Below, piece after piece: positions 6 through 9,835 of a DNA stretch of 9,835 nucleotides. A program made the position numbers and the translations under genes. How positions within the stretch are numbered: the first letter of the stretch is position 1; each line of letters opens with the position of its first letter. Below the pieces are notes generated by a model. The model ran no database searches. It saw only the letters and a list, made by a program, of their open reading frames with translations, and was not told the DNA's origin. The DNA comes from Pyrobaculum sp. Its GTDB lineage: Archaea > Thermoproteota > Thermoprotei > Thermoproteales > Thermoproteaceae. The DNA is taken from NCBI GenBank assembly GCA_009903905.1, contig WYEI01000312.1, positions 1-9,835 of the forward strand, given 5' to 3'.

Positions 6-1073
6 TTGCCGCTACGGTTTCTCGGCACTTTAAGGCTTAAGTATGCAGATATCGATAAAGCCGTGAAGAGAATTAAGCTTAAGCTCGCGCCTGGCGTGGA
101 GACGGAGTTTACGGACAGAGATCGCGCTCTTGTGCAGGTGGTGGAGTGGGCTGAGAGGAGTACGAGGTTTCCTGTCGTCGTGTTTGGGCCGGAGGGTTGT
201 GGTAAGTCTGCGTTCCTTAGGCAGGCCGCCGAGGCGTTGGGCGGGTTTGGCTTTGATGTCGTGTATGTGGATGCGGCGCATAGAGATTTCGTGGCTTATA
301 CAGACGTGGCGGAGGTGGCTAGGCGGCTTCTTGACGCCGCCTCCGACGTCTCTGGCTTGGCCCAGCTGAAGCTGGCCTACCTAGCCGTAGATCTGGCCAA
401 GGAGCTGATGGGGCGGTGGGGCAAGAAGAAAGTGGCGGTACTTGTGGACGAAGTGTTTCAAGCCGTCGGGCTGGACAAAGCAGGAATATACGTAAAGAGC
501 CTCTTGAACCTAATCGAATACCCGCCGAGGAGTTACGAAAAAATCGTAGCCATCGCCGTCACAAGCGAGGGGCTCTCAAGAGCCGAAATCGGCAGACACA
601 GGTGGGCCGACGTAATGCCTATGTGGAATATGCCGCGGGAGGGCTTTAGGCAACTGTATGAGAAACTGCCTGGCCCCAAGCCTCCCTTCGAAGATGTCTG
701 GAGGTGGACCGGCGGGAATCCGGGGATGCTTTCTAGGCTTTACTCAACTGGCTGGAACAGCGGTGCCGTGGTGACGCGGCTCATTAGAGAGAAGAGGCTG
801 ACGCCGGATTTCGTGACAAGGTGGAGGAGCTGGCTTGAGAAGACTGTGGAGGACCCCGAGGCCTTGTGGAGCCCAGACGCCCCCGAGGAGTTGATCAAAC
901 AGCTGGTGGAGAGAAACCTCATCCTCTACAACATATACGAAAGAGAGGAGATATTCTGGGTAGACGCCCCGCCGCCAGAGAGGGACCCCGAACTCGGCAT
1001 TGGGAAGAACGTGGCATGGCAAACCCCCATACACAGAGAGGCGGTGAGAATGGCGCTAGGGGCGCCTTCTTGA
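6..1073 (+). CDS. Archaeal AAA-type P-loop ATPase, left copy
   Basis: This is a 355-residue ATP-binding protein of the archaeal ATPase type (STAND/AAA-like). Walker A is GPEGCGKS at residues 61-68. Walker B ends in Asp-Glu at residues 148-149, after a run of hydrophobic residues. The C-terminal 150 residues look like the helical/winged region typical of the family. A TTG start at 6 is chosen because it aligns with the GTG start of the paralog at 9184; only five bases are visible upstream, so a start further left cannot be excluded. Residues 32 to about 176, which hold the whole nucleotide-binding core, are encoded by a tract identical to the right-hand copy, while both flanks are diverged. 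Members of this family are often multicopy in thermophilic archaea and their cellular role is mostly unknown. I see no nuclease or transposase domain. Sixty bases separate it from the PaREP1 gene, which has its own promoter. Confidence 0.88.
   Translation: MPLRFLGTLRLKYADIDKAVKRIKLKLAPGVETEFTDRDRALVQVVEWAERSTRFPVVVFGPEGCGKSAFLRQAAEALGGFGFDVVYVDAAHRDFVAYTDVAEVARRLLDAASDVSGLAQLKLAYLAVDLAKELMGRWGKKKVAVLVDEVFQAVGLDKAGIYVKSLLNLIEYPPRSYEKIVAIAVTSEGLSRAEIGRHRWADVMPMWNMPREGFRQLYEKLPGPKPPFEDVWRWTGGNPGMLSRLYSTGWNSGAVVTRLIREKRLTPDFVTRWRSWLEKTVEDPEALWSPDAPEELIKQLVERNLILYNIYEREEIFWVDAPPPERDPELGIGKNVAWQTPIHREAVRMALGAPS
100..532 (+). repeat. 433-bp identical direct repeat, left copy
   Basis: By hand alignment this tract matches 9278-9710 base for base at a constant offset of 9178. 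It lies wholly inside the ATPase gene and spans Walker A and Walker B. Both edges are abrupt: the preceding 94 bp are about 71% identical to the paralog and the following 125 bp about 74%. Silent sites inside the tract are also identical, which points to recent gene conversion or recombination rather than selection on the protein. Confidence 0.92.
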
Positions 1074-1106: not shown

Positions 1107-1114
1107 TTTTTAAA
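1107..1114 (+). promoter_or_regulatory. TATA-like box for the PaREP1 gene
   Basis: A TTTTTAAA box is centred about 24 bases before the GTG at 1134. This is the spacing expected if transcription starts at or next to the start codon, as in leaderless crenarchaeal mRNAs. No Shine-Dalgarno-like sequence is apparent before the GTG. Confidence 0.6.
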
Positions 1115-1133
1115 GAGAGATGTAGCTGTTTTC

Positions 1134-1685
1134 GTGGTTGTTGAGCTTGTGGAGCGTCCTCTTCCCAAGCCCTCCGACGAGGGCTATATAGAGGCTAGGC
1201 TTCTCGAGGCTCTCGTGGAGGCCCGTCTGGCGCTTCGTTTTCTTGAGGAGGGCCTTACGAGGAACGCGGCCGGCAAGGCCTTCCAGGCGTGGAGGGCCCT
1301 CCTGGCGGCCCTGCTGCGCCTAGAGCTGGAGAGGCTCAAGGCGTTGGTCAAGACTGAGGAGGAGCGCCGCTGGCTTGAATCTACCGCGGTGCCTAGGGTC
1401 CCCACGACCAAGATGGTCGCGCTTTCGCTCATGCTCGAGAAGGCTGGCCACGAGGGCATATCGCTCTGGACTGACCGCGCGCTCCTCCTTCACGACTATC
1501 AGTACAACGGGCCGGATCCCGACATGGCTCTTTCGAAGTTCGGGAGTAGGGAGGAGGCTGTGGAGTACGTCTTGAGGCTTGCGGGCGAGGTGGCGAGACG
1601 CGTCGAGGCTCTTAGGGGCAGGGTCAAGCGGCCCGACGAGCTGGATAGGGCGCTCGCGGAGTTAAGGGGTGCCCTGGGGCGATAG
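1134..1685 (+). CDS. PaREP1-family protein
   Basis: This is a 183-residue, almost wholly alpha-helical, highly charged protein of the PaREP1/PaREP8 type, a family multicopy in Pyrobaculum and relatives whose function is not established. The family look shows in the N-terminal VVELVERPLPKP segment, the Glu-Ala-Arg-rich helices around residues 20-75 (EARLLEALVEARLALRF), and the central Trp-Thr-Asp and His-Asp-Tyr-Gln-Tyr-Asn-Gly motifs near residues 115-127. The C-terminal 50 residues are predicted helical, possibly coiled coil. The length is within the family's usual range and the frame is clean, so it looks intact. The GTG start is supported by a TATA box about 24 bases upstream and by the near-identical start of the 17-codon fragment at 2342. 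It is transcribed in the same direction as the ATPase, but probably from its own promoter. I see no signal peptide or membrane segment. Confidence 0.85.
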   Translation: MVVELVERPLPKPSDEGYIEARLLEALVEARLALRFLEEGLTRNAAGKAFQAWRALLAALLRLELERLKALVKTEEERRWLESTAVPRVPTTKMVALSLMLEKAGHEGISLWTDRALLLHDYQYNGPDPDMALSKFGSREEAVEYVLRLAGEVARRVEALRGRVKRPDELDRALAELRGALGR

Positions 1686-1706
1686 CGCCGTCGAGGCCGC
1701 CGCAGC

Positions 1707-1718
1707 GCCGACGTCGGC
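1707..1718. repeat. 12-bp perfect palindrome after the PaREP1 gene
   Basis: GCCGACGTCGGC is a perfect inverted repeat 22 bases after the PaREP1 stop codon. It could pair with itself or bind a dimeric protein, but the region is GC-rich and no T-tract follows, so it may be chance. Confidence 0.25.
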
Positions 1719-1797
1719 CGGCCTCTCGCCATCTCACCGCCTAGAGCGTCTAATGCCTTGCATCGTTGGAGATCTGCCCTTCCCGACTTGAGGGGCC

Positions 1798-2320
1798 TCA
1801 GATGTAGTAGAGAACCGCCAGGAGGGCCGTGAAGATGGCGCCTTTCGCCAGCTCCCGCCGGCCCATCCTCGCTATGTCTTGACAGCAGGAGTACTTGATG
1901 TTTCTCTTGATGTTTGCCGTGAATTTGCGGCTCCGCGGCGGCTATAAGCGCGGCGGGCCAGAGAGGCGCCGTCAGGTCCACAGCGGGGATCCAGACGTAC
2001 AGCGCCACGTGGGGCTTGACGTACCTGAATGCGAGCCGCGACTCGACGTAGTAGGCGGTGGCCACGTGATATCCGACGAACATAGAGGAGGTAGTCCCTC
2101 AGCGCCAGCCGGTGGATCACAACAGCCTTCGCCAGAAGGATGGTCGAGGAGAGGAAGGCGGTGCCCGTCACGATACCCTCCACGGTCCGTCTCCCCCCTC
2201 TATGCATGAGTACGGCATACGACGCGAAGACCAGGAGGCCTATGGCGTAGGCCAGGAGGCTCCACCAGCCGAGCGCCGCGGCGGCGTCTGCGTGTGGGCT
2301 CTGGCTGTTTCTAGCTTTTA
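1798..2320 (-). pseudogene. Frameshifted remnant of a small membrane protein
   Basis: Three consecutive minus-strand segments in three frames read as one membrane protein. The first (about 2320 to 2086) holds two hydrophobic helices, one around GWWSLLAYAIGLLVFASYAV and one around GTAFLSSTILLAKAVV, ending at RDYLL. The second (about 2085 to 1931) continues FVGYHVATAYYVESRLAF and carries a third hydrophobic stretch. The third (about 1930 to 1798) reads RKFTANIKRNIKY, then a terminal helix GAIFTALLAVLYYI and a TGA stop. Moving between segments takes a +1 shift near 2085 and another near 1940. No in-frame start codon precedes the first helix; the frame only stays open by running antisense into the PaREP1 and methyltransferase fragments, so the N-terminus seems lost. 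I do not recognise the family. A sequencing error could explain one shift but is unlikely to explain both plus a missing start. Confidence 0.6.
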
Positions 2321-2324
2321 AAAA
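2316..2324. promoter_or_regulatory. TATA-like box of the PaREP1 fragment
   Basis: TTTTAAAAA is centred about 22 bases before the GTG at 2342, matching the arrangement at the intact PaREP1 gene. The core is palindromic and could also fire leftward towards the membrane pseudogene, though no start codon is correctly placed on that side. Confidence 0.5.
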
Positions 2325-2341
2325 GGACTGCAGGAGTTCCC

Positions 2342-2395
2342 GTGGTTGTTGAGCTTGTGGAGAAGCCGCTTCCCAAGCCCTCGTCAGAGGGCTAG
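2342..2395 (+). pseudogene. PaREP1 5' fragment, 17 codons
   Basis: The 17 sense codons read VVELVEKPLPKPSSEG after the initiator and match the N-terminus of the intact PaREP1 protein with two substitutions (Arg to Lys and Asp to Ser). The DNA match stops at GGGCTA. The codon that is Tyr (TAT) in the intact gene becomes TAG because the next base belongs to foreign sequence. The fragment keeps a TATA-like box at the leaderless distance, so it could still be transcribed and would yield a short peptide. I read it as the promoter-proximal stub of a second PaREP1 gene that was cut off by recombination or deletion. Confidence 0.8.
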
Positions 2396-2640
2396 ATGTT
2401 GTGAAAATAGATTGCGAGGGTTGCGGATGGGCTCTGCTCACTCTGGGATGTCAAGAGATTAGGAGGGCTGGGGAATACGCAATAGAAATACACGGTCCAG
2501 AGCCCCTACTGTTGAGAAAACTGGAAAAATGCGGATTTCGCTCTAGGGGAATTCCGAGTAGTAATCTTGTTCCAATATGGAGTATTTGGCATTTTAAACG
2601 ACTCCAAGCGGTCTTAATGCGGCTCGCCCCCTCAATGTTT
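2392..2640 (+). pseudogene. FkbM-type methyltransferase C-terminal fragment
   Basis: Starting at the PaREP1 stub junction, the frame reads LDVVKIDCEGCGWALL. This resembles the FkbM SAM-dependent methyltransferase motif, usually an Asp-Val-(Val/Ile)-Lys-x-Asp-x-Glu-Gly-x-Glu block followed by a small or hydrophobic run. It continues with EYAIEIHGPEPLLLRKLEKC and then Gly-Phe, like the family's late strand and final Lys-Leu-x-x-x-Gly-Phe helix. The second Glu of the motif is replaced by Gly here. FkbM enzymes O-methylate sugars and other small molecules and are common in glycan loci. The N-terminal SAM-binding half is missing. The frame stays open to 2718, into the next gene, so the original end is unclear. 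The stretch is more AT-rich than the PaREP1 DNA to its left. A GTG at 2401 could begin translation, but only of a non-catalytic tail. Confidence 0.5.
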
Positions 2641-2665: not shown

Positions 2666-3484
2666 GTGAAGGCTGTTGTTGCTGCTGCTGGCTTAGGGTC
2701 TCGTCTTCTGCCGGCTAGTAAGGAGATGCCTAAGGAGATGTTTCCAGTGTTTGATTTTGAAGACGGCGAGATGGTGGTTAAGCCGGTTCTCCAAATCGTA
2801 TTTGAGCAACTATACGACGCGGGCGTTAGGGAGTTTTGTTTCGTGGTGGGCAGGGGGAAGCGCGCCATTGAGGATTACTTCACGCCTGACTGGAGCTTCG
2901 TGGAGGAGCTGGAAAAGGCAGGTAAACAGGTGCAGGCCAAGTCGCTGAGGAGATTCTACAGTAAGATAGAGAACTCCTCCATTGTATATGTGAACCAGCC
3001 CCGGCCTCTGGGCTTCGGCCACGCGGTGCTCACGGCGAGGTCCGTCGTTGACGACGACTTCATAGTTGCCGGCGGCGACACCTACCTGGCGGATCCAGCG
3101 CCTCTCCGCGAGCTGGCGGCGTCAAGACCAATCTCTATTTTGGTTAAGGAGGTGGAGAACCCCAGGCAGTACGGAGTGGCGGTGGTTAGAGATGGGAGAA
3201 TCGTAAGGGTGGTGGAGAAGCCTAAAGAGCCGCCGTCAAACGTTGCAATATTGCCCTTCTACAAGTTCCCCCGCGGCTTCTTCAAATACCTAGAGCGAGT
3301 TAGGCCGGGCGTGGGGGGCGAGCTACAGCTCACAGACGCCATTCAGCTGGCAATTGAGGAGGGTGTGGAGGCGAGGCCTATATATTATGCCGACGTGTAT
3401 TTCGATGTTGGCACTCCCCAAACCTATTTAAAAGCGTTGGAATGGATTATCGATGTGGCGAGAAAAAACGCTGGAGCTCATTAA
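2666..3484 (+). CDS. galU: GalU-type UTP--glucose-1-phosphate uridylyltransferase
   Basis: This 272-residue nucleotidyltransferase is predicted to make UDP-glucose from UTP and glucose-1-phosphate in the cytoplasm. The N-terminus KAVVAAAGLGSRLLPASKEM with Pro-Lys-Glu-Met following (residues 2-25) is the nucleotide-binding signature, with Arg13 and Lys23 in the expected places. PLGFGHAVLTA (114-124) matches the GalU substrate loop. GGD at 136-138 supplies the metal-binding Asp. YGVAV and GGELQLTDAI follow in family order. The long spacing between the first block and the GHAV motif is typical of GalU rather than RmlA. A dTTP-using enzyme remains possible, but the adjacent Ugd and UDP-xylose synthase genes favour UTP. 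The GTG start gives the usual family N-terminus and sits about 24 bases after a TATA-like box. Its 3' end overlaps the next gene by 32 bp. Confidence 0.88.
   Translation: MKAVVAAAGLGSRLLPASKEMPKEMFPVFDFEDGEMVVKPVLQIVFEQLYDAGVREFCFVVGRGKRAIEDYFTPDWSFVEELEKAGKQVQAKSLRRFYSKIENSSIVYVNQPRPLGFGHAVLTARSVVDDDFIVAGGDTYLADPAPLRELAASRPISILVKEVENPRQYGVAVVRDGRIVRVVEKPKEPPSNVAILPFYKFPRGFFKYLERVRPGVGGELQLTDAIQLAIEEGVEARPIYYADVYFDVGTPQTYLKALEWIIDVARKNAGAH
3425..3433 (+). promoter_or_regulatory. Possible internal TATA box for the decarboxylase gene
   Basis: TATTTAAAA lies inside the 3' end of the GalU-type gene, centred 24 bases before the ATG at 3453. The spacing fits a leaderless start, so the decarboxylase may be expressed from its own promoter as well as from the operon. 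Confidence 0.45.
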
Positions 3485-4424
3485 CGCCCCCAGGCCCAGA
3501 GGCCGCGTCTTGATCACAGGCTGTGCGGGCTTCATAGGGAGCTGGCTCGCGGAGGCGCTGGCAGATGCCGCCGAGGTGTACTGCGTGGACAACCTATCCA
3601 CGGGGCGTCTAGAAAACCTATCCGCCGTCTTGGACAGAGTGGTTTTCATCAAGGGAGACGTCGCCGAGGTAGACCTGCCGCGGTTCGACGTGGCTTTCCA
3701 CGGGGCGGCGCTTCCCGCCCCCGACTACTACGTGCAGCGACCGGCGGAAACGATGTTGCCCGACAGCTTCGGCCTCTTCCGCGTGTTGAAAAAAGCCGCC
3801 GAGAGCGGCGGACGCGTAGTTTTTCTCAGTAGTTCCGAGGTCTACGGAGATCCTGAGGTGGTGCCGACGCCGGAGACGTACTGGGGCCGAGTCAACCCCG
3901 TAGGCGTCAGAAGCCCCTACGACGAGTCGAAGAGGTTTGGGGAGGCTCTCTCCATGGCTTTCCACAGAGAATACGGCGTCGACGTGGTGGTGGCGCGCAT
4001 TTTCAACACCTACGGACCCCGTCTCGACCCAGACAGCTCATACGCCAGGGTGGTGACGAAGTTCCTCTTCCAAGCGCTGAGGGGGGAGCCCATCACTATC
4101 CACGGCGACGGGACGCAGACGAGGAGCTTCACATACGTCAGCGACATAGTTCGGGCGCTACTACTGCTGGCCACGTGCGGGCGGTGTAGCGGCGAGGTGT
4201 ACAACGTCGGCAGCGACGAGGAGGTTTCAATACTTCAGCTGGCTCATCTCGTCAAGGAGGTTACCGGCAGCAATTCGCCTATTGTATACACAGCTCCGAG
4301 GCCAGACGACCCAAGGCGCAGGAGGCCCGACATCACTAAGATTAAGGGCTTGGGCTGGACACCTATTGTAAAACTTAAAGAAGGCCTTTATCTAACTGCT
4401 TCATGGCTTCGCTCGCTGTTGTAG
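3453..4424 (+). CDS. UDP-glucuronate decarboxylase (UDP-xylose synthase)
   Basis: This 323-residue extended short-chain dehydrogenase is predicted to convert UDP-glucuronate to UDP-xylose with bound NAD. The Rossmann motif GCAGFIG is at residues 23-29. The active-site strand SSSEVYGDPEVVP (126-138) and YWGRVNPVGVRSPYDESK (143-160), with Tyr156 and Lys160, match the UXS subfamily better than UDP-glucose 4-epimerases. RIFNTYGPR (182-190), the GDGTQTRSFTYVSD block and the late DDPRRRRPDI block are also characteristic of UXS. In the TNxxGT helix, the usual Asn aligns with Asp104 in PDSFG; this is unusual but does not change the assignment. It overlaps the upstream gene by 32 bp and the downstream Ugd gene by 22 bp, and Ugd makes its substrate. 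I see no transmembrane anchor, unlike animal UXS. Confidence 0.85.
   Translation: MWREKTLELINAPRPRGRVLITGCAGFIGSWLAEALADAAEVYCVDNLSTGRLENLSAVLDRVVFIKGDVAEVDLPRFDVAFHGAALPAPDYYVQRPAETMLPDSFGLFRVLKKAAESGGRVVFLSSSEVYGDPEVVPTPETYWGRVNPVGVRSPYDESKRFGEALSMAFHREYGVDVVVARIFNTYGPRLDPDSSYARVVTKFLFQALRGEPITIHGDGTQTRSFTYVSDIVRALLLLATCGRCSGEVYNVGSDEEVSILQLAHLVKEVTGSNSPIVYTAPRPDDPRRRRPDITKIKGLGWTPIVKLKEGLYLTASWLRSLL
4374..4380 (+). promoter_or_regulatory. Weak TATA-like box before the Ugd gene
   Basis: CTTAAAG is centred about 26 bases before the ATG at 4403, inside the decarboxylase gene. The spacing is right for a leaderless start but the box is short, so it may be chance. Confidence 0.28.
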
Positions 4425-5683
4425 GGCTTGGCTACGTCGGGTTGATACACGCCGTAGGCTTCACGTTGATCGGACACAGAGTTGTGGGCTACGACATAAA
4501 CCGCGCCGTTGTTGAGTCGTTGAGGAGGGGAAGGCCTCACATCTACGAGCCGGGGCTTGAGGAGGCTCTTCGAAAAGCCCTAGAAAGCGGGAGGCTGAAG
4601 TTTACGGATTCTCTTGAGGACGCCGTTGCTGAGTCCGAGGCCGCTTTCATCGCAGTTGGGACGCCGTCGGCGCCAGACGGCTCTGCGGATTTAAGCCAGG
4701 TGGAGGCCGCGGCGAGAGCCGTCGGCAGGGCGATGAGGGGGAAGAAATGGTACCTCGTCGTGGTGAAATCAACGGTGCCGCCGGGCACCACTGAAGGCCT
4801 CGTGGCTGGGGCTGTTGCCGAGGAGAGCGACGCCGAGCTGGGGGTGGGGTTCTCCGTGGCTTCTAATCCAGAATTCCTCAGGGAGGGCACGGCTCTGGAG
4901 GACTTCTTCAAGCCCGATAGGGTTGTTATCGGGGCGGGGGACGAGAAGGCGGCTTCTTTCCTCCTTGAGGTATATAGACCTATAGAGGCCCCTAAGATCG
5001 TCATGAAGCCGCGGGAGGCGGAGCTGGTCAAGTACGTGTCTAACGTATTTCTTGCGCTTAAGATCAGCTTCGCCAACGAGGTTGGGCTTCTGGCTAAGAA
5101 ACTGAGCGTGGACACCTATAGGGTTTTCGAGGCCGTGGGGCTCGACAGGAGGATTGGGCCGCATTACTTCGGCGCGGGTCTTGGCTTCGGCGGGTCCTGC
5201 TTCCCAAAGGATCTGCGGGCGTACATAAAGCTGGGCGAACGGCTTGGCGTGGATCTACACATAGCGAAGGCAAGCTACGTGGTTAATGAATACATGCTTC
5301 AATACGCCGTTGAGTTGTTGGAGAAGCATCTAGGAGATCTGAGGGGGAGGAGGATCGGGGTCCTTGGCCTTGCCTTTAAGCCCAATACAGACGACGTAAG
5401 AGAGTCCAGAGGTGTAGAGCTCGCAAAAATGCTTGTAGCCAGGGGGGCTGTAGTGTATGTCCATGACCCTGTTGCAGTGGAGAAAGCTAAGGCGGTTCTG
5501 GGCAACGCCGTGGTCTACGTGGAGGATCCCCAGTTTCTTGTGGACAATACAGAGGCGGTGGTTATTGCCACCGCGTGGCCGCAATATGAAGAACTAAACT
5601 ACACAAACACCATCGTCATAGGTGGAAGACGAGTAAAAAAGGCAAGAGAAGCAAAAATATACGAAGGAATAGCATGGGCCTAA
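4403..5683 (+). CDS. ugd: UDP-glucose 6-dehydrogenase
   Basis: This 426-residue enzyme is predicted to oxidise UDP-glucose to UDP-glucuronate with two NAD. The N-terminal NAD-binding motif GLGYVG is at residues 8-13. GTPSAPDGSADLS and KSTVPPGTT follow in order. SNPEFLREGTALEDFFKPDR is the family signature. VKYVSNVFLALKISFANE forms the central helix. The catalytic Cys is Cys266 in GFGGSCFPKD. The C-terminal UDP-binding domain starts at GVLGLAFKPNTDDVRESR. The length is normal and all key residues are present. The ATG at 4403 overlaps the decarboxylase by 22 bp, and the stop overlaps the next glycosyltransferase by 10 bp. The last 30 or so codons shift towards A-ending codons, unlike the rest of the gene. 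UDP-glucuronate may serve both as a direct glycan donor and as the decarboxylase substrate. Confidence 0.93.
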   Translation: MASLAVVGLGYVGLIHAVGFTLIGHRVVGYDINRAVVESLRRGRPHIYEPGLEEALRKALESGRLKFTDSLEDAVAESEAAFIAVGTPSAPDGSADLSQVEAAARAVGRAMRGKKWYLVVVKSTVPPGTTEGLVAGAVAEESDAELGVGFSVASNPEFLREGTALEDFFKPDRVVIGAGDEKAASFLLEVYRPIEAPKIVMKPREAELVKYVSNVFLALKISFANEVGLLAKKLSVDTYRVFEAVGLDRRIGPHYFGAGLGFGGSCFPKDLRAYIKLGERLGVDLHIAKASYVVNEYMLQYAVELLEKHLGDLRGRRIGVLGLAFKPNTDDVRESRGVELAKMLVARGAVVYVHDPVAVEKAKAVLGNAVVYVEDPQFLVDNTEAVVIATAWPQYEELNYTNTIVIGGRRVKKAREAKIYEGIAWA

Positions 5684-6789
5684 AAGTAGCTATATTGACA
5701 CCCACATACTGCGGCCGAGATATTCTTGAGTACTACTTCCAAAGCGCAATTAAACATAAAATAGATCCTGATATTTTTTTATTTGTAGTAAAACCATGTC
5801 AAGATAAGCAGAAAGATTCCATCATCACTATTGAAAAATATAAAGATATTTTAGATAACATCGCTATAGTTAATTATAGAGGAGAATATGGACTTATAAA
5901 ACAAATTTTACTTGGTCTTAGAATACTAAAAAGATTAAATTTTGATATAGTAATTTTTACAGACGATGATACATATTTTATTGATAATAAATATATTACT
6001 AAATATGTTGAACATTATGAAAATAGAATAATTGGCGGAGTTGCTGGACGTGTGGTTGATGCTAAAGTTCAACCTACTGGAGACATTACGCTACAAGGTC
6101 AGCATGTAACCATATATCCTAAAAAACTTTATCTCTGGCGTATACCTGCAACGAATGAGATATACCAGACATATTTCACAAAGGGTGGGTATGTAGCAGT
6201 TTGGGGAAATGATAGCTACCACGTAATTAGAGGAAAGAGAATTATGCCATCGCTATTAGGAGGGGGATCAAATATGTCAATAAGATTAAAGGCGTTAGAG
6301 AATCTCATAGACAGAGACTACCTACTACCTAACATGTATATTGGACAAAGATACGAACAAATACTAGGATATCATATAGTTAAAAATAAATATAAAGTTA
6401 TAAAAGATTACGATATTGTTACATTGCATTTATTTAGAGAGACTGGCGAGACAAGAGCTCCAAGGCCTTCTAGGCGTGGCACTCTCACAGCTTCTGATGA
6501 GTTCATTTATTATTATATGAAAAATTTATATAAATCAGATTTTTCATTGATATATCACTTTATTTCAATTTTACAAAGATTATATAGGCATACATTTATA
6601 GAACCGCGATTAGGTGGTGGAAAATGCCTGTTTGAAACATGGATTGGCCGCATACTTGGGCAATTATTTGGAAATACTCTTGGGATTTGGTATAATCTAA
6701 CGAAAAATAAAGATTATTTATATTATTCTTTTACTAATTTCGATAAAAAAATAAGATTTTTAGACAGATGTATGAATTCTAGGCGATGA
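5674..6789 (+). CDS. AT-rich GT-A fold (GT2-like) glycosyltransferase
   Basis: This 371-residue protein begins VAILTPTYCGRDILEYYFQS, the nucleotide-sugar-binding start of GT2-like enzymes. It has an FTDDDTYF motif with Asp97-Asp99 as the likely metal/donor site, and GGGSNMSIR further on, which resembles the acceptor-side region where GT2 enzymes recognise a new chain segment. The C-terminal 100 residues are rich in Tyr, Phe and Ile but I see no clear multi-spanning domain, so it is probably cytosolic or membrane-associated. The donor and acceptor are unknown. Codon use is strikingly AT-rich (ATA, AAA, TAT, TTA), opposite to the GC-rich genes on both sides, and the change is sharp at the right border near 6785. 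This suggests acquisition from an AT-rich archaeon or virus-associated source. It overlaps Ugd by 10 bp and the next gene by 4 bp (ATGA), so translation is probably coupled. Confidence 0.75.
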   Translation: MGLKVAILTPTYCGRDILEYYFQSAIKHKIDPDIFLFVVKPCQDKQKDSIITIEKYKDILDNIAIVNYRGEYGLIKQILLGLRILKRLNFDIVIFTDDDTYFIDNKYITKYVEHYENRIIGGVAGRVVDAKVQPTGDITLQGQHVTIYPKKLYLWRIPATNEIYQTYFTKGGYVAVWGNDSYHVIRGKRIMPSLLGGGSNMSIRLKALENLIDRDYLLPNMYIGQRYEQILGYHIVKNKYKVIKDYDIVTLHLFRETGETRAPRPSRRGTLTASDEFIYYYMKNLYKSDFSLIYHFISILQRLYRHTFIEPRLGGGKCLFETWIGRILGQLFGNTLGIWYNLTKNKDYLYYSFTNFDKKIRFLDRCMNSRR

Positions 6790-8003
6790 CAGCCATATCA
6801 GTCGTAGCTCATCACTATTGGGGCTCGCCGGGTGGTGGTCAGTTGGTCTGTGCCTCTGCGGCGTTGGCGCTTGACGAGTTGGGCTATAGGCCGGTGCTTG
6901 CCGGTACTTTCAAGTTCGATGCATCGCGGTATTTGGAGTGGTATGGCATAGATCTGCGGAGGTATGAGGTTGTGACTCTGCCGTTTGGCGCCAGGGCGTT
7001 TGGGCTGTGGAGTAGGCTGTTTGTGTGGTATCCTGCGTTGAAGGCGGTGAAGAGGTTTAGGCCCGATTTGGTGTTTATTGACGAGGTGGCGTATAAGCCG
7101 CTTCTGGGGCGTAAGGCGTTCCGTCTTGTGGAGTACATCCACTTCCCCTACGAGGTGGCTGTTGACCCGAGGTTTAGGGGTACTGGGCTTGCGTATGGCG
7201 AGGATCCGTACATAATGGAGCGGTACGGCAGGTTTCCGCTGAATCTGTACTGGAGGGTCTACACGTGGCTTCTGCCGAGGTATATGCGGGATAACCCGTT
7301 CCGGGCGGCTGATGTGGTGCTTGTGAATTCGCGGTGGACGGCCTCGGTGGCTGAGATGGTGTATGGCGAGGAGCCGGAGGTGCTCAACCCGCCGCTTCCG
7401 CCCAACGTCGAGGTGGTGGAGAGGCCGAGGCCCTTCGGGGAGAGGGAGCCGGTCGTCGTGATGCTGGGCCGCTTCTCGCAGGAGAAGCGGTATCACTGGG
7501 TGGTGAGGGAGGTGGCGCCCCGCCTGGTGAAGGAGGTGCCGGGGGCCCGCCTGGTGATATTTGGCGGGGCCGCCACGCCGACGCTCCAGGCGTACTACCG
7601 CCGTGTGTGGAGGCTGGCGGAGGAGGCGGGGCTCAGGGTGGCCGACAGCTTGGAGGCCAAGGCCGACGTGTATCTCGTCGCCAATGCGCCGCGCAGGTTG
7701 ATAAACGAGGCTATGGATAGGGCGAGGGTCTTCCTCCACGCCACGATAAACGAGCACTGGGGCATCGCCGTTGCGGAGGCCATGGCGCGGGGGTTGCCCG
7801 TGGTGGTGCACAGATCCGGCGGGGCCTGGACGGACCTGGCGGAGGAGGGGCGGTACGGCCTCGGCTACGAGACTGCGGAGGAGGCCGTGGAGGCTTTGGC
7901 GCGGCTACTCCTCAAGGAGGCGAAGTTCGACACCACCGAGAAGGCGAGGGAGCTGACCTACCCCAAGTTTAGGGAGAGGCTGGCGAAGGTGTTGGGGCTG
8001 TGA
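6786..8003 (+). CDS. GT4-family glycosyltransferase, ALG11-like
   Basis: This 405-residue GT-B fold enzyme has a Gly-rich acceptor loop (SPGGGQL, with Gly16-Gln19) at the N-terminus. The retaining GT4 Glu-x7-Glu motif is at Glu323 and Glu331 in NEHWGIAVAEAMARGLPVV, followed by His-x-Ser-Gly-Gly. The linker VLNPPLPP and the start of the donor domain VVMLGRFSQEKRY are classic GT4 features. The GGGQ loop, the NEHWGI block and the HRSGG segment recall ALG11, the alpha-1,2-mannosyltransferase of eukaryotic N-glycan assembly, but the sugar transferred cannot be deduced. It probably extends a lipid-linked or surface glycan on the cytoplasmic face; hydrophobic Trp/Tyr-rich stretches near residues 75-90 and 150-165 could touch the membrane. 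It starts at an ATGA overlap with the AT-rich gene and ends in a 4-bp GTGA overlap with the next gene. Its composition is GC-rich like the rest of the operon. Confidence 0.85.
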   Translation: MTAISVVAHHYWGSPGGGQLVCASAALALDELGYRPVLAGTFKFDASRYLEWYGIDLRRYEVVTLPFGARAFGLWSRLFVWYPALKAVKRFRPDLVFIDEVAYKPLLGRKAFRLVEYIHFPYEVAVDPRFRGTGLAYGEDPYIMERYGRFPLNLYWRVYTWLLPRYMRDNPFRAADVVLVNSRWTASVAEMVYGEEPEVLNPPLPPNVEVVERPRPFGEREPVVVMLGRFSQEKRYHWVVREVAPRLVKEVPGARLVIFGGAATPTLQAYYRRVWRLAEEAGLRVADSLEAKADVYLVANAPRRLINEAMDRARVFLHATINEHWGIAVAEAMARGLPVVVHRSGGAWTDLAEEGRYGLGYETAEEAVEALARLLLKEAKFDTTEKARELTYPKFRERLAKVLGL

Positions 8004-8770
8004 TCCTCGCCACCTATCTGCCTATTTTTAGGGCGCATGAGCTCCGTATATTCCAGAAGAACGTGGAGATGTTGCGGCCGGACCAAGTGCTGGTCTGCGT
8101 CGACTACTTCTTCGACGAGAGGCAACGTGACATGTTGCGGCTCTATCTCCCGCCCGGCGCTTCGTTGATCGTCGGCAATTGGCGCAACCGCACCTCCTGC
8201 TTGCTGAGGCTTGTGGATGTTATAGCTAGGGAGGGGGACGGCTTAGTTGTGGACTCCGACGTGGTTCTCGCCGGGGAGTTCCCCGAAATAAACAGGTGGG
8301 TGGAGGAGCCTCTGTATCACGTGGCTGAGGCTCCTTGGCGCCATAGAAGAGTGGTGAGGGTGGAGAGGAGGGGCGGCGTGGATGTTTACTACTGGCGCAT
8401 CAAGGCGTTGTGGAGTAGGTATATGCAGGTTTTTGTGGGGCCTAAGCTCGCCGTTCGGATAAAGAAGAGGCTCCTCCTTGACGTCAAGCCTGTTCTGGAC
8501 GTGGTCGAGTCTATGGATCCTCTCCTCGCCTCCGTCATCGCCGACGAGACCACGCTCGGCGTAGTCTACGACAGGGCTGGAATAGCCGAGGTGCCGTTTG
8601 TCGTGGCGTGTCGGCACTACCCCCACGGCAGCTACCCCAAGGCGCCGGAAGACCGGGCGTTGCGGAAGCGGATCTACGCCAAGGCTCTGTGGTTGTTTTT
8701 CCGCAGGCTGGGCTACTGGCCGCCGGCGTTGCGATACCTATTGACGTACGTAGCGCAGTCTCTGCGCTGA
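8000..8770 (+). CDS. Putative GT-A type glycosyltransferase with a DxD motif
   Basis: I do not recognise this 256-residue protein as a named family. The N-terminal strand ILATYLPIFRAHELRIF, the NWRNRT segment at 60-65, and GLVVDSDVVL with Asp85-Ser-Asp87 give a layout like the nucleotide-sugar-binding half of a small GT-A enzyme. A later DETTLGVVYDRAGI and ACRHYPHGSYPK segment could supply the catalytic base and metal-binding His. The C-terminus is basic and aromatic (WLFFRRLGYWPPALRYLL), suggesting peripheral membrane contact. It begins with GTG in a 4-bp overlap with the GT4 gene and is the last gene of the block, so it probably adds or modifies a sugar of the same glycan. Family assignment and catalytic residues are inferred only from this motif and the neighbours. 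Confidence 0.6.
   Translation: MILATYLPIFRAHELRIFQKNVEMLRPDQVLVCVDYFFDERQRDMLRLYLPPGASLIVGNWRNRTSCLLRLVDVIAREGDGLVVDSDVVLAGEFPEINRWVEEPLYHVAEAPWRHRRVVRVERRGGVDVYYWRIKALWSRYMQVFVGPKLAVRIKKRLLLDVKPVLDVVESMDPLLASVIADETTLGVVYDRAGIAEVPFVVACRHYPHGSYPKAPEDRALRKRIYAKALWLFFRRLGYWPPALRYLLTYVAQSLR
8752..8768 (+). terminator. Hairpin at the end of the last glycosyltransferase gene
   Basis: AGCGCAG and CTGCGCT are perfect 7-bp arms around a 3-base loop, and the hairpin reaches into the TGA stop codon. It could stabilise the 3' end or help termination. There is no T-tract after it, which is the usual archaeal signal, so the terminator label is tentative. Confidence 0.3.
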
Positions 8771-9183
8771 GCTAGAGGGGCCGGTTGCAACAGTCGCGAA
8801 GCAGTAGCCCGCTGACAAACTCTCTGTGTGTTTGAGCCGATGGCGTCGTGGTTACCGCAACTGCAGGGAGGGGCGTTTAATATATCCCCGCCGTATGTGG
8901 TGCCGTGTTGAGGCTAAGCCACTGGGCGTTGTAGGTTTTGCCGCGATGCAACGTTTCGAGTTGTGTAACTGGTACGGCGGGAGCTGTTGCTGGGGCTCTT
9001 GCGTCGCCTTTTTAGCTCGGCCGCTGGCCCCTCTCGCCATTTCGCCGGCTTGTTGCTATCTGTCTCTAGCTAGTTTATTGATCGTCCTAGACGCCGTAGC
9101 TGACTCTTCGCGCGGGCTGGGGTTCTTCTTTATTCCTCAGCGTCGCTGGCGGCCTTTGGGGCTTGTGCCATGTGACGCTTGCC
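8771..9183. other. 413-bp gap with no convincing gene, possible decayed sequence
   Basis: No clean gene fits here. A plus-strand frame from 8826 stays open to 9218, but it runs into the start of the right-hand ATPase in another frame, is Cys/Trp/Arg-rich in the manner of noncoding GC-rich DNA, and has no family resemblance over most of its length. A short stretch VEAKPLGVVGFAAM (8907 onward) and a hydrophobic stretch near LASLLIVLDAVA look like parts of a membrane protein, possibly broken by frameshifts. No tRNA cloverleaf or box C/D sRNA signature was seen. A strong TATA-like box lies at 8876-8885. Confidence 0.4.
8876..8885 (+). promoter_or_regulatory. Orphan TATA-like box
   Basis: TTTAATATAT stands out in a GC-rich region and is centred 24 bases before a GTG at 8905. 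That GTG opens only a 9-codon frame ending in TAG, so the promoter drives either a small RNA, a tiny peptide or the remains of a dead gene. Confidence 0.45.
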
Positions 9184-9835
9184 GTGCATCTGCGGCTTCC
9201 CGGCGCTGGAAGGTTTAAGTACGCAGATGTTGAGAATGCCGTGAGGAGGATTGTGCTTGAGCTTGTTCCTGGTCTCAAGACGGAGTTTACGGACAGAGAT
9301 CGCGCTCTTGTGCAGGTGGTGGAGTGGGCTGAGAGGAGTACGAGGTTTCCTGTCGTCGTGTTTGGGCCGGAGGGTTGTGGTAAGTCTGCGTTCCTTAGGC
9401 AGGCCGCCGAGGCGTTGGGCGGGTTTGGCTTTGATGTCGTGTATGTGGATGCGGCGCATAGAGATTTCGTGGCTTATACAGACGTGGCGGAGGTGGCTAG
9501 GCGGCTTCTTGACGCCGCCTCCGACGTCTCTGGCTTGGCCCAGCTGAAGCTGGCCTACCTAGCCGTAGATCTGGCCAAGGAGCTGATGGGGCGGTGGGGC
9601 AAGAAGAAAGTGGCGGTACTTGTGGACGAAGTGTTTCAAGCCGTCGGGCTGGACAAAGCAGGAATATACGTAAAGAGCCTCTTGAACCTAATCGAATACC
9701 CGCCGAGGAGCTATGAGAAAATCGTAGCCATCGCCGCCACAAGCGAAGGCGTGACGCGGGAGGAGATTGGGAGACACCTCTGGGCTGAGTTGCGGCCTAT
9801 GTGGAACATGCCTAGGGAGGGCTTCCAGCAGCTGT
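9184..9835 (+). CDS. Archaeal AAA-type P-loop ATPase, right copy (cut by window edge)
   Basis: This is a paralog of the ATPase at 6-1073; the first 217 codons are visible and the frame is open at the right edge. The GTG start at 9184 aligns with the TTG start of the left copy, giving HLRLPGAGRFKYADVENAVR against PLRFLGTLRLKYADIDKAVK. Walker A (GPEGCGKS) and Walker B are identical to the left copy because both lie in the shared 433-bp tract. After about residue 176 the copies diverge, for example TSEGVTREEIGRHLWAEL here against TSEGLSRAEIGRHRWADV on the left. The two proteins thus share one nucleotide-binding core but differ at the N-terminal 31 residues and in the visible downstream part. No clear TATA box lies at the leaderless distance, so its promoter is unknown. 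Confidence 0.88.
   Translation, partial: MHLRLPGAGRFKYADVENAVRRIVLELVPGLKTEFTDRDRALVQVVEWAERSTRFPVVVFGPEGCGKSAFLRQAAEALGGFGFDVVYVDAAHRDFVAYTDVAEVARRLLDAASDVSGLAQLKLAYLAVDLAKELMGRWGKKKVAVLVDEVFQAVGLDKAGIYVKSLLNLIEYPPRSYEKIVAIAATSEGVTREEIGRHLWAELRPMWNMPREGFQQL
9278..9710 (+). repeat. 433-bp identical direct repeat, right copy
   Basis: Identical to 100-532 at a constant offset of 9178 and in the same orientation. Homologous recombination between the two copies would delete or circularise the 9.2 kb between them, including the entire glycan operon, and leave one intact hybrid ATPase gene. Confidence 0.92.

What the first reader, a model, noticed from the sequence alone, without database searches (positions are those of the whole stretch)
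100..532. Gene-conversion tract confined to the ATP-binding core of two ATPase paralogs
The two ATPase genes are identical over 433 bp, including silent sites, yet only about 71% identical over the preceding 94 bp and 74% over the following 125 bp (my hand counts: 27 and 33 mismatches). The tract covers residues 32 to about 176, with both Walker motifs, so one shared ATPase engine is joined to different ends. Such a mosaic suggests recent or ongoing conversion that homogenises the motor while the partner-specific parts diversify.
Basis: partly seen in the sequence, partly recalled or inferred. Interest (0 to 1): 0.72.

Follow-up and report, generated by a model that had tools for sequence, protein, structure and literature searches.

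The report
Shuffled middle segment in archaeal ATPases
Two related ATPase genes in a heat-loving archaeon share an identical middle piece between very different ends, because members of this gene family swap segments by recombination; the swapped piece carries one of the family's more variable parts, so the swapping seems to mix variants more than to keep a motor uniform.

Summary
Third positions: 0 of 144 differ in the tract, 20 of 42 after it. Both genes are PF01637 ATPases; the best named genome match is Pyrobaculum sp. WP30.

Recombination between paralogs is supported; "homogenising a motor while the ends diversify" is not. In 6 of 8 genomes residues 86-121, inside the tract, are the least or second least conserved of 11 segments. 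Of 62 tracts, 21 overlap 100-545 by 30% or less. WP30 copies are mosaics: 34 of 78 pairs significant, 10 of 78 on third positions, against at most 2 and 0 in 20 recombination-free simulations. A second genome of the genus has nearly the same tract (128-542, 98% inside, 58% outside). Other records join A-type tails to very different middles (P0041: tail 91%, middle 25%).

Best reading: segmental gene conversion shuffling modules of an NLR/Cdc6-like ATPase often neighbouring the HEPN protein PaREP1. Function, donor and direction are unproven; exact identity could be inflated by assembly.

The parts
63..1073 (+). ATPase copy A, PF01637 ATPase_2, 336 aa from GTG 63 (longer frame from TTG 6)
   Evidence: Pfam E 1.2e-69 on the longer frame; 24 of 42 related loci align from about this codon; predicted fold matches 2QEN and 2FNA
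100..532 (+). identical tract, copy 1
   Evidence: 0 of 433 mismatches to 9278-9710
36..43 (+). CTTAAGTA, TATA-like box 20-27 nt before GTG 63 (inferred; motif recalled)
   Evidence: sequence; TTTAAGTA in copy B; CTTAAGTA also upstream of the WP30 gene at 1032513
186..209 (+). Walker A, GPEGCGKS, residues 42-49
   Evidence: translation; P43, C46, G47 and K48 invariant in 77 aligned sequences; motif name recalled
243..425 (+). variable segment, residues 61-121, between Walker A and B
   Evidence: within-genome amino-acid identity of residues 86-121 is 0.36-0.69 in 8 genomes, lowest or second lowest of 11 segments in 6; 22-25% identity to several proteins with A-type tails
432..452 (+). Walker B strand, VAVLVDE, residues 124-130
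   Evidence: D129 invariant in 77 aligned sequences; motif name recalled
747..821 (+). second variable segment, residues 229-253, outside the tract
   Evidence: within-genome identity 0.27-0.37 in 8 genomes
1134..1685 (+). PaREP1 (PF05942, HEPN family), 60 bp after ATPase A, same strand
   Evidence: Pfam E 1.3e-27; HEPN assignment from passages of PMC2701414 and PMC3710099
9241..9835 (+). ATPase copy B, truncated by the window end
   Evidence: Pfam E 4.8e-57 on the longer frame; 9040-9835 is 85% identical to Pyrobaculum WP30, L001 4861-5652
9278..9710 (+). identical tract, copy 2
9214..9221 (+). TTTAAGTA, TATA-like box of copy B (inferred)
   Evidence: sequence

Best explanation
The tract is a recent product of homologous recombination (most simply gene conversion) between members of a multi-copy archaeal ATPase family. 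It is one instance of a family-wide process that moves segments between paralogs: roughly an N-terminal/P-loop segment, a central segment from after Walker A to just past Walker B, and C-terminal segments. The central segment carries one of the more variable parts of the protein, so transfer shuffles variants among copies rather than keeping a uniform motor. Shown by tests here: the mosaic, its recurrence in other genomes, and the variability of the moved segment. Inferred: nonreciprocal conversion as the DNA mechanism; a signal-responsive NLR/Cdc6-like role, with PaREP1 as a frequent neighbour; that the variability serves recognition. Unresolved: donor and direction; a third donor is possible.
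For: Exact tract with silent sites. Copy B is the positional counterpart of the WP30 gene at 1032513: upstream and gene align and 533-657 is 97% identical; copy A's 658-950 is nearest to WP30 1094213 (85-90%) while its core is nearest to 1032513 (88% against 71%). Conservation-corrected test: WP30 34/78 pairs (10/78 on third positions), G3 15/28 (3/28), G4 7/10 (3/10), G2 5/6 (0/6), G5 1/3 (0/3); G19 13/36 (3/36), G18 12/28 (2/28), G15 6/10 (4/10). A simpler permutation test gave 26/78, 8/28, 8/10, 4/6, 0/3 in the first five. Simulation of the WP30 set without recombination: mean 0.2, maximum 2 of 78 pairs on all sites, 0 on third positions, in 20 runs. G4 pair: tract 128-542, 98% inside, 58% outside. 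WP30 identity in the central module correlates with the C-terminal variable module at 0.12, against 0.81 (minimum 0.69) in 100 simulations. 118 homologs plus copy A: pairwise identity in residues 61-121 correlates 0.88 with the adjacent 122-157 but 0.15 with 229-300. A-type N-terminus, this middle and A-type tail recur together in P0001 and P0002, and B-type ends with this middle in P0014, so the phasing is not a chimera of the window alone.
Against: G2 and G5 show nothing on third positions. Breakpoints are not concentrated in conserved patches (local conservation 0.586 against 0.606 at random), so no joint sequence is identified. That 0 of 13 WP30 copies have one and the same nearest paralog in four modules is not significant alone (13 of 100 simulations equal it). 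B against WP30 1032513 differs more in the tract (52/433) than in the 3' flank (4/125), p=0.002, so 'B is the native donor' is not secured. In G3 and G15 residues 86-121 are not among the two most variable segments. Pairs share members, so counts of pairs are not counts of events.
Confidence: 0.8

Rival explanations
1. Assembly effect: two similar but not identical cores were collapsed to one consensus, creating perfect identity with sharp borders.
For: The window starts 99 bp before one copy and ends 125 bp after the other, as contigs ending near a repeat do; whether the window is a whole contig is unknown. No genome is held for the window and reads were not available.
Against: Both gene combinations recur in other protein records: A type with this middle in P0001 and P0002, B type in P0014, P0004 and P0011. 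The G4 genome, a contig of 2.0 Mb, shows a 415-bp tract at 98% in nearly the same place with a 260-bp exact run. This supports the mosaic, not the perfect identity as such.
Confidence: 0.12
2. Homogenisation: selection keeps one ATP-binding engine uniform by conversion while partner-specific ends diversify.
For: 28 of 62 tracts lie 90% or more inside 100-545. Concerted evolution of whole genes is reported for seven archaeal genes, all from methanogens (PMC6053082, passages).
Against: Residues 86-121 are highly variable within most genomes, A-type tails carry middles 22-25% identical, and tracts also occur towards both ends.
Confidence: 0.08
3. Recent whole-gene duplication followed by replacement of both ends by other paralogs, leaving the core as the untouched remnant.
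For: Tracts in N-terminal and C-terminal segments exist in relatives, so end replacement is possible.
Against: A's N-terminus and tail occur together in P0001 and P0002, B's in P0014 and in WP30 1032513; two end replacements are less simple than one core transfer.
Confidence: 0.08
4. Strong constraint on the DNA itself (silent sites) keeps the core identical without exchange.
For: None found.
Against: The same core differs from WP30 1032513 at 52 of 433 positions, with silent divergence 0.35-0.76 in its three parts; middle segments of other copies differ widely.
Confidence: 0.01
5. Crossing-over between the two direct repeats (excision or duplication of the 9.2-kb interval) made the identity, rather than nonreciprocal conversion.
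For: The copies are direct repeats 9178 bp apart; the neighbourhood is rearranged against WP30 (PaREP1 region 93.5% identical but inverted).
Against: One crossover gives hybrid genes, but A and B keep ends that belong together in other records.
Confidence: 0.06

Closest known systems
Archaeal Walker ATPases with solved structures: PABY2304 (2QEN) and SSO1545 (2FNA)
   Different: Only 13% and 16% identical; no PDB sequence matched at E 0.001; neither is in the 50 rows shown by Foldseek itself. That they belong to PF01637 is recalled
NLR/CED-4 and Cdc6/Orc1 type NTPases
Concerted evolution of prokaryotic paralogs (PMC6053082, passages seen)
   Same: Conversion between paralogs in one genome
   Different: There whole genes stay uniform; here variable segments are exchanged and copies stay diverse. 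Its main text has no occurrence of 'Pyrobaculum' or 'ATPase'
Cassette-type antigenic variation (recalled)
   Same: Variable segments moved between homologous copies by recombination
   Different: No silent-cassette arrangement was seen: 33 of 35 full-length copies, copy A included, have no in-frame stop; expression was not testable
HEPN two-gene modules with an ATPase (PMC3710099, passages seen)
   Same: A HEPN protein encoded next to an ATPase; MAE_18760-type HEPN with a ParA/Soj-like ATPase is proposed there as a toxin-antitoxin pair
   Different: Its PaREP1/8 row lists tandem PaREP and MNT/REase operons, not PF01637, and says R is lacking and H conserved; here R is present in 3 of 12

Membership tests
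PF01637 ATPase_2 | profile score over the curated cut-off | tested here: met
   235.1 and 193.8 bits against cut-off 33.2
PF01637 ATPase_2 | P-loop and Walker B acidic residue | tested here: met
   GPEGCGKS, with P43, C46, G47, K48 and D129 invariant in 77 sequences
PF01637 ATPase_2 | same fold as solved archaeal relatives | tested here: met
STAND/NLR-type signal NTPase | NTPase plus winged-helix arrangement like NLR or Cdc6 | tested here: inconclusive
STAND/NLR-type signal NTPase | ligand-triggered oligomerisation and effector output | not testable with these tools
   needs biochemistry
Gene conversion tract | identity including silent sites with sharp borders between diverged paralogs | tested here: met
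Gene conversion tract | nonreciprocal transfer with known donor and recipient | tested here: inconclusive
   WP30 comparison suggests a B-like donor, but tract and 3' flank of B disagree
Concerted evolution (homogenisation) | the converted region is more alike among paralogs within a genome than the rest | tested here: not met
   residues 86-121 are the lowest or second lowest of 11 segments in 6 of 8 genomes
HEPN toxin-antitoxin pair with PaREP1 | stable adjacent gene pair | tested here: inconclusive
   PaREP1 within 700 bp of 9/13 (WP30), 3/8 (G3), 3/5 (G2), 1/3 (G5) ATPases; random means 0.34, 0.31, 0.18, 0.11: enriched in three of four genomes, not universal
HEPN toxin-antitoxin pair with PaREP1 | Rx4-6H catalytic motif conserved | tested here: not met
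   aligned H in 12 of 12, R five before it in 3 of 12, copy A's neighbour among the three

The most novel reading that the evidence does not exclude
Thermoproteaceae keep a combinatorial repertoire of small NLR-like ATPases whose variable segments, one inside the ATP-binding core, are reshuffled by gene conversion; paired with HEPN-fold PaREP1 proteins they act as a rapidly re-mixed sensor set against viruses or other intruders, an archaeal parallel to plant NLR clusters.
Probability: 0.17. Interest if true: 0.85.

Novelty: new variant of a known kind. Interest (0 to 1): 0.5.

Why it matters
Segment exchange between paralogs is known, but here the exchanged piece lies inside an ATP-binding domain and is itself one of the more variable parts, so A-type tails are found with middles only 22-25% identical. 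Single trees of the family would then mislead, because segments have different histories. Residues 61-121 and 229-253 become candidates for interaction surfaces (inference). It also gives testable targets for PaREP1 and these ATPases, two multi-copy gene families of Pyrobaculum whose functions are unproven.

Tried and rejected
Own genome: not held. Viral-contig scan: no match. PDB sequence search: no match. PADLOC: only weak hits over the P-loop region, for copy A best mad8 at 4e-6 over 39 residues; PaREP1 none; not counted as membership. Foldseek's own top rows are mixed AAA+ chains with TM-scores 0.27-0.48; the family reading rests on the second look. Breakpoints in conserved joints: not found. 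Covariation of PaREP1 with any ATPase segment: none significant, n=12, best r 0.34, p 0.058. 'One nearest paralog in all modules': 0 of 13, 0 of 8, 0 of 5, but for WP30 not significant alone. Donor by diagnostic residues: 3 sites, one on the tract border; the other 2 match the B lineage, too few to use. Ten literature searches: I saw listings; of five papers I saw passages, none whole.

Rows left out: 2 partial matches and 2; weak or partial matches were mostly not fetched. One search left out G4; its PaREP1 list is only what one search printed (23 of 26, 33 of 40, 36 of 43, 35 of 38 for G1, G3, G2, G5), and one of its five G2 ATPases is incomplete. The protein search scored 7999 candidates, found 1498 and listed the best 120; searches used 118 of these 120 (two outside 300-380 aa dropped) plus copy A; the fold alignment used 76 of 120 plus copy A.

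Full report
At third codon positions 5/12, 0/144 and 20/42 differ before, in and after the tract. The start codon is probably GTG 63 rather than TTG 6: 24 of 42 related loci align from residue 18-20 of the longer frame and P0001 and P0041 have Met there, although some homologs are longer (352-358 aa). With that start, 57 of the '94 preceding bp' are upstream sequence. Copy B is cut off by the window end.

WHERE THE PIECES COME FROM. Window 9040-9835 aligns at 85% with the WP30 gene at 1032513 and its upstream region; copy B's 533-657 is 97% identical to it. Copy A's 658-950 is nearest to WP30 1094213 (85-90%), but its core is nearest to 1032513 (88% against 71%). That suggests a B-like donor and A as recipient. 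Against this, B's tract differs from WP30 1032513 at 52/433 sites while its 3' flank differs at 4/125 (Fisher p=0.002), so a third donor, or conversion on the WP30 side, is open. In WP30 a broken remnant (1041786-1042022) shares the core of 1032513 at 95-96% over 301-532 and 72% over the next 32 sites: about the same 3' border.

IS IT GENERAL? I aligned full-length copies within genomes (13, 4, 8, 5 and 3 copies in G1=WP30, G2=P. oguniense, G3, G4, G5; 9, 8 and 5 in G19, G18, G15). A test that subtracts family conservation site by site found significant local excess identity in 34/78, 5/6, 15/28, 7/10 and 1/3 pairs and in 13/36, 12/28 and 6/10. On third positions only: 10/78, 0/6, 3/28, 3/10, 0/3, 3/36, 2/28, 4/10. 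In 20 simulations of the WP30 set without recombination (average-linkage tree, site rates from the data, 200 permutations each) the test gave a mean of 0.2 and a maximum of 2 of 78 pairs on all sites and none on third positions. Module identities in WP30 are nearly uncorrelated (central against C-terminal variable module 0.12; simulated mean 0.81, minimum 0.69, 100 runs). The G4 pair is a near copy of the window case: 128-542, 98% inside, 58% outside, longest exact run 260 bp. Pairs share members, so these counts are not independent events. No simulation was made for the other genomes.

WHAT IS MOVED. Tracts are not confined to the core: of 62 all-site tracts in five genomes, 28 lie 90% or more inside 100-545 and 21 overlap it by 30% or less; of 16 third-position tracts, 6 and 5. 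The moved core is not a uniform engine: within-genome amino-acid identity in residues 86-121 is 0.37, 0.50, 0.62, 0.36, 0.37 (G1-G5) and 0.38, 0.39, 0.69 (G19, G18, G15), lowest or second lowest of 11 segments in six of eight (not G3, G15). Residues 229-253, outside the tract, are 0.27-0.37 throughout. The Walker A part of the tract (residues 37-60) is well conserved everywhere (0.72-0.84). Among 118 homologs, those with A-type tails have middles from 97% down to 22% identical; P0062, 89% in the tail and 22% in the middle, is on a contig of 167 kb. Identity of residues 61-121 follows the adjacent 122-157 (r=0.88) but not 229-300 (r=0.15). These homologs were chosen by similarity to copy A, so the sample leans to its type.

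CONSTRAINT. Once in place the middle seems conserved: between B and its WP30 counterpart dN is 0.022 and dS 0.351 in residues 61-121. Variety would then come from exchange of types, not from fast point change; this is inference from one pair.

NEIGHBOUR. PaREP1 (PF05942, a HEPN family per PMC2701414 and PMC3710099, passages) follows copy A by 60 bp. PaREP1 lies within 700 bp of 9/13, 3/8, 3/5 and 1/3 ATPases in WP30, G3, G2 and G5, against 0.34, 0.31, 0.18 and 0.11 expected (p 0.0002, 0.003, 0.0006, 0.11; G4 not examined, PaREP1 list incomplete). The aligned H is present in 12/12 neighbours, an R five before it in 3/12, so RNase activity of this kind is doubtful for most. PaREP1 identity does not track any ATPase segment significantly (n=12). 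The PaREP1 row of PMC3710099 that I saw does not list this pairing; I did not read the paper whole. Titles and abstract starts in the ten literature searches name neither the pairing nor conversion in this family; the library lacks most subscription papers, so this is no proof of absence.

MECHANISM AND CAVEATS. Shown: mosaic genes, recurrence, variable cargo. Inferred: gene conversion by homologous recombination; a recognition role of the variable parts; cooperation with PaREP1. The perfect identity could be inflated by assembly, since the window begins 99 bp before one tract copy and ends 125 bp after the other; the mosaic itself does not depend on that, because both combinations occur in other records.

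VERDICT. Observation confirmed; conversion reading supported; homogenisation reading not supported. New variant of a known kind, interest 0.5.

Noticed in passing
window 2316-2397: Remnant of a PaREP1 5' end with the stretch before it and an early stop, 78% to 1108-1189 and 91.6% over 83 bp to WP30, L009 3201-3283.
   Followed up: partly
window 5674-6789: AT-rich ORF (GC about 0.32-0.34 in windows inside it, 0.57-0.66 in windows at 4801-5400 and 7201-7800), weakly like glycosyltransferase family 2 (E 0.069, below the cut-off); may be recently acquired.
   Followed up: partly
window 2666-8770: Sugar-nucleotide and glycosyltransferase genes (nucleotidyl transferase, epimerase, UDP-glucose dehydrogenase, GT4) lie between the two ATPase direct repeats; crossing-over could delete or duplicate them.
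   Followed up: no
window 1108-1942; L001 9760-10610: PaREP1 region 93.5% identical to WP30 but inverted relative to the ATPase there: a rearranged neighbourhood.
   Followed up: partly
G001 1041786-1042022 and 1091018-1092013; G002 2040708-2041705: Broken or fragmentary ATPase copies; the first shares the core of an intact copy up to about the same 3' border.
   Followed up: partly
WP30, G2 and G3 genomes: Enriched adjacency of PF01637 ATPases and PaREP1 genes, not named in the listings and passages that I saw.
   Followed up: partly
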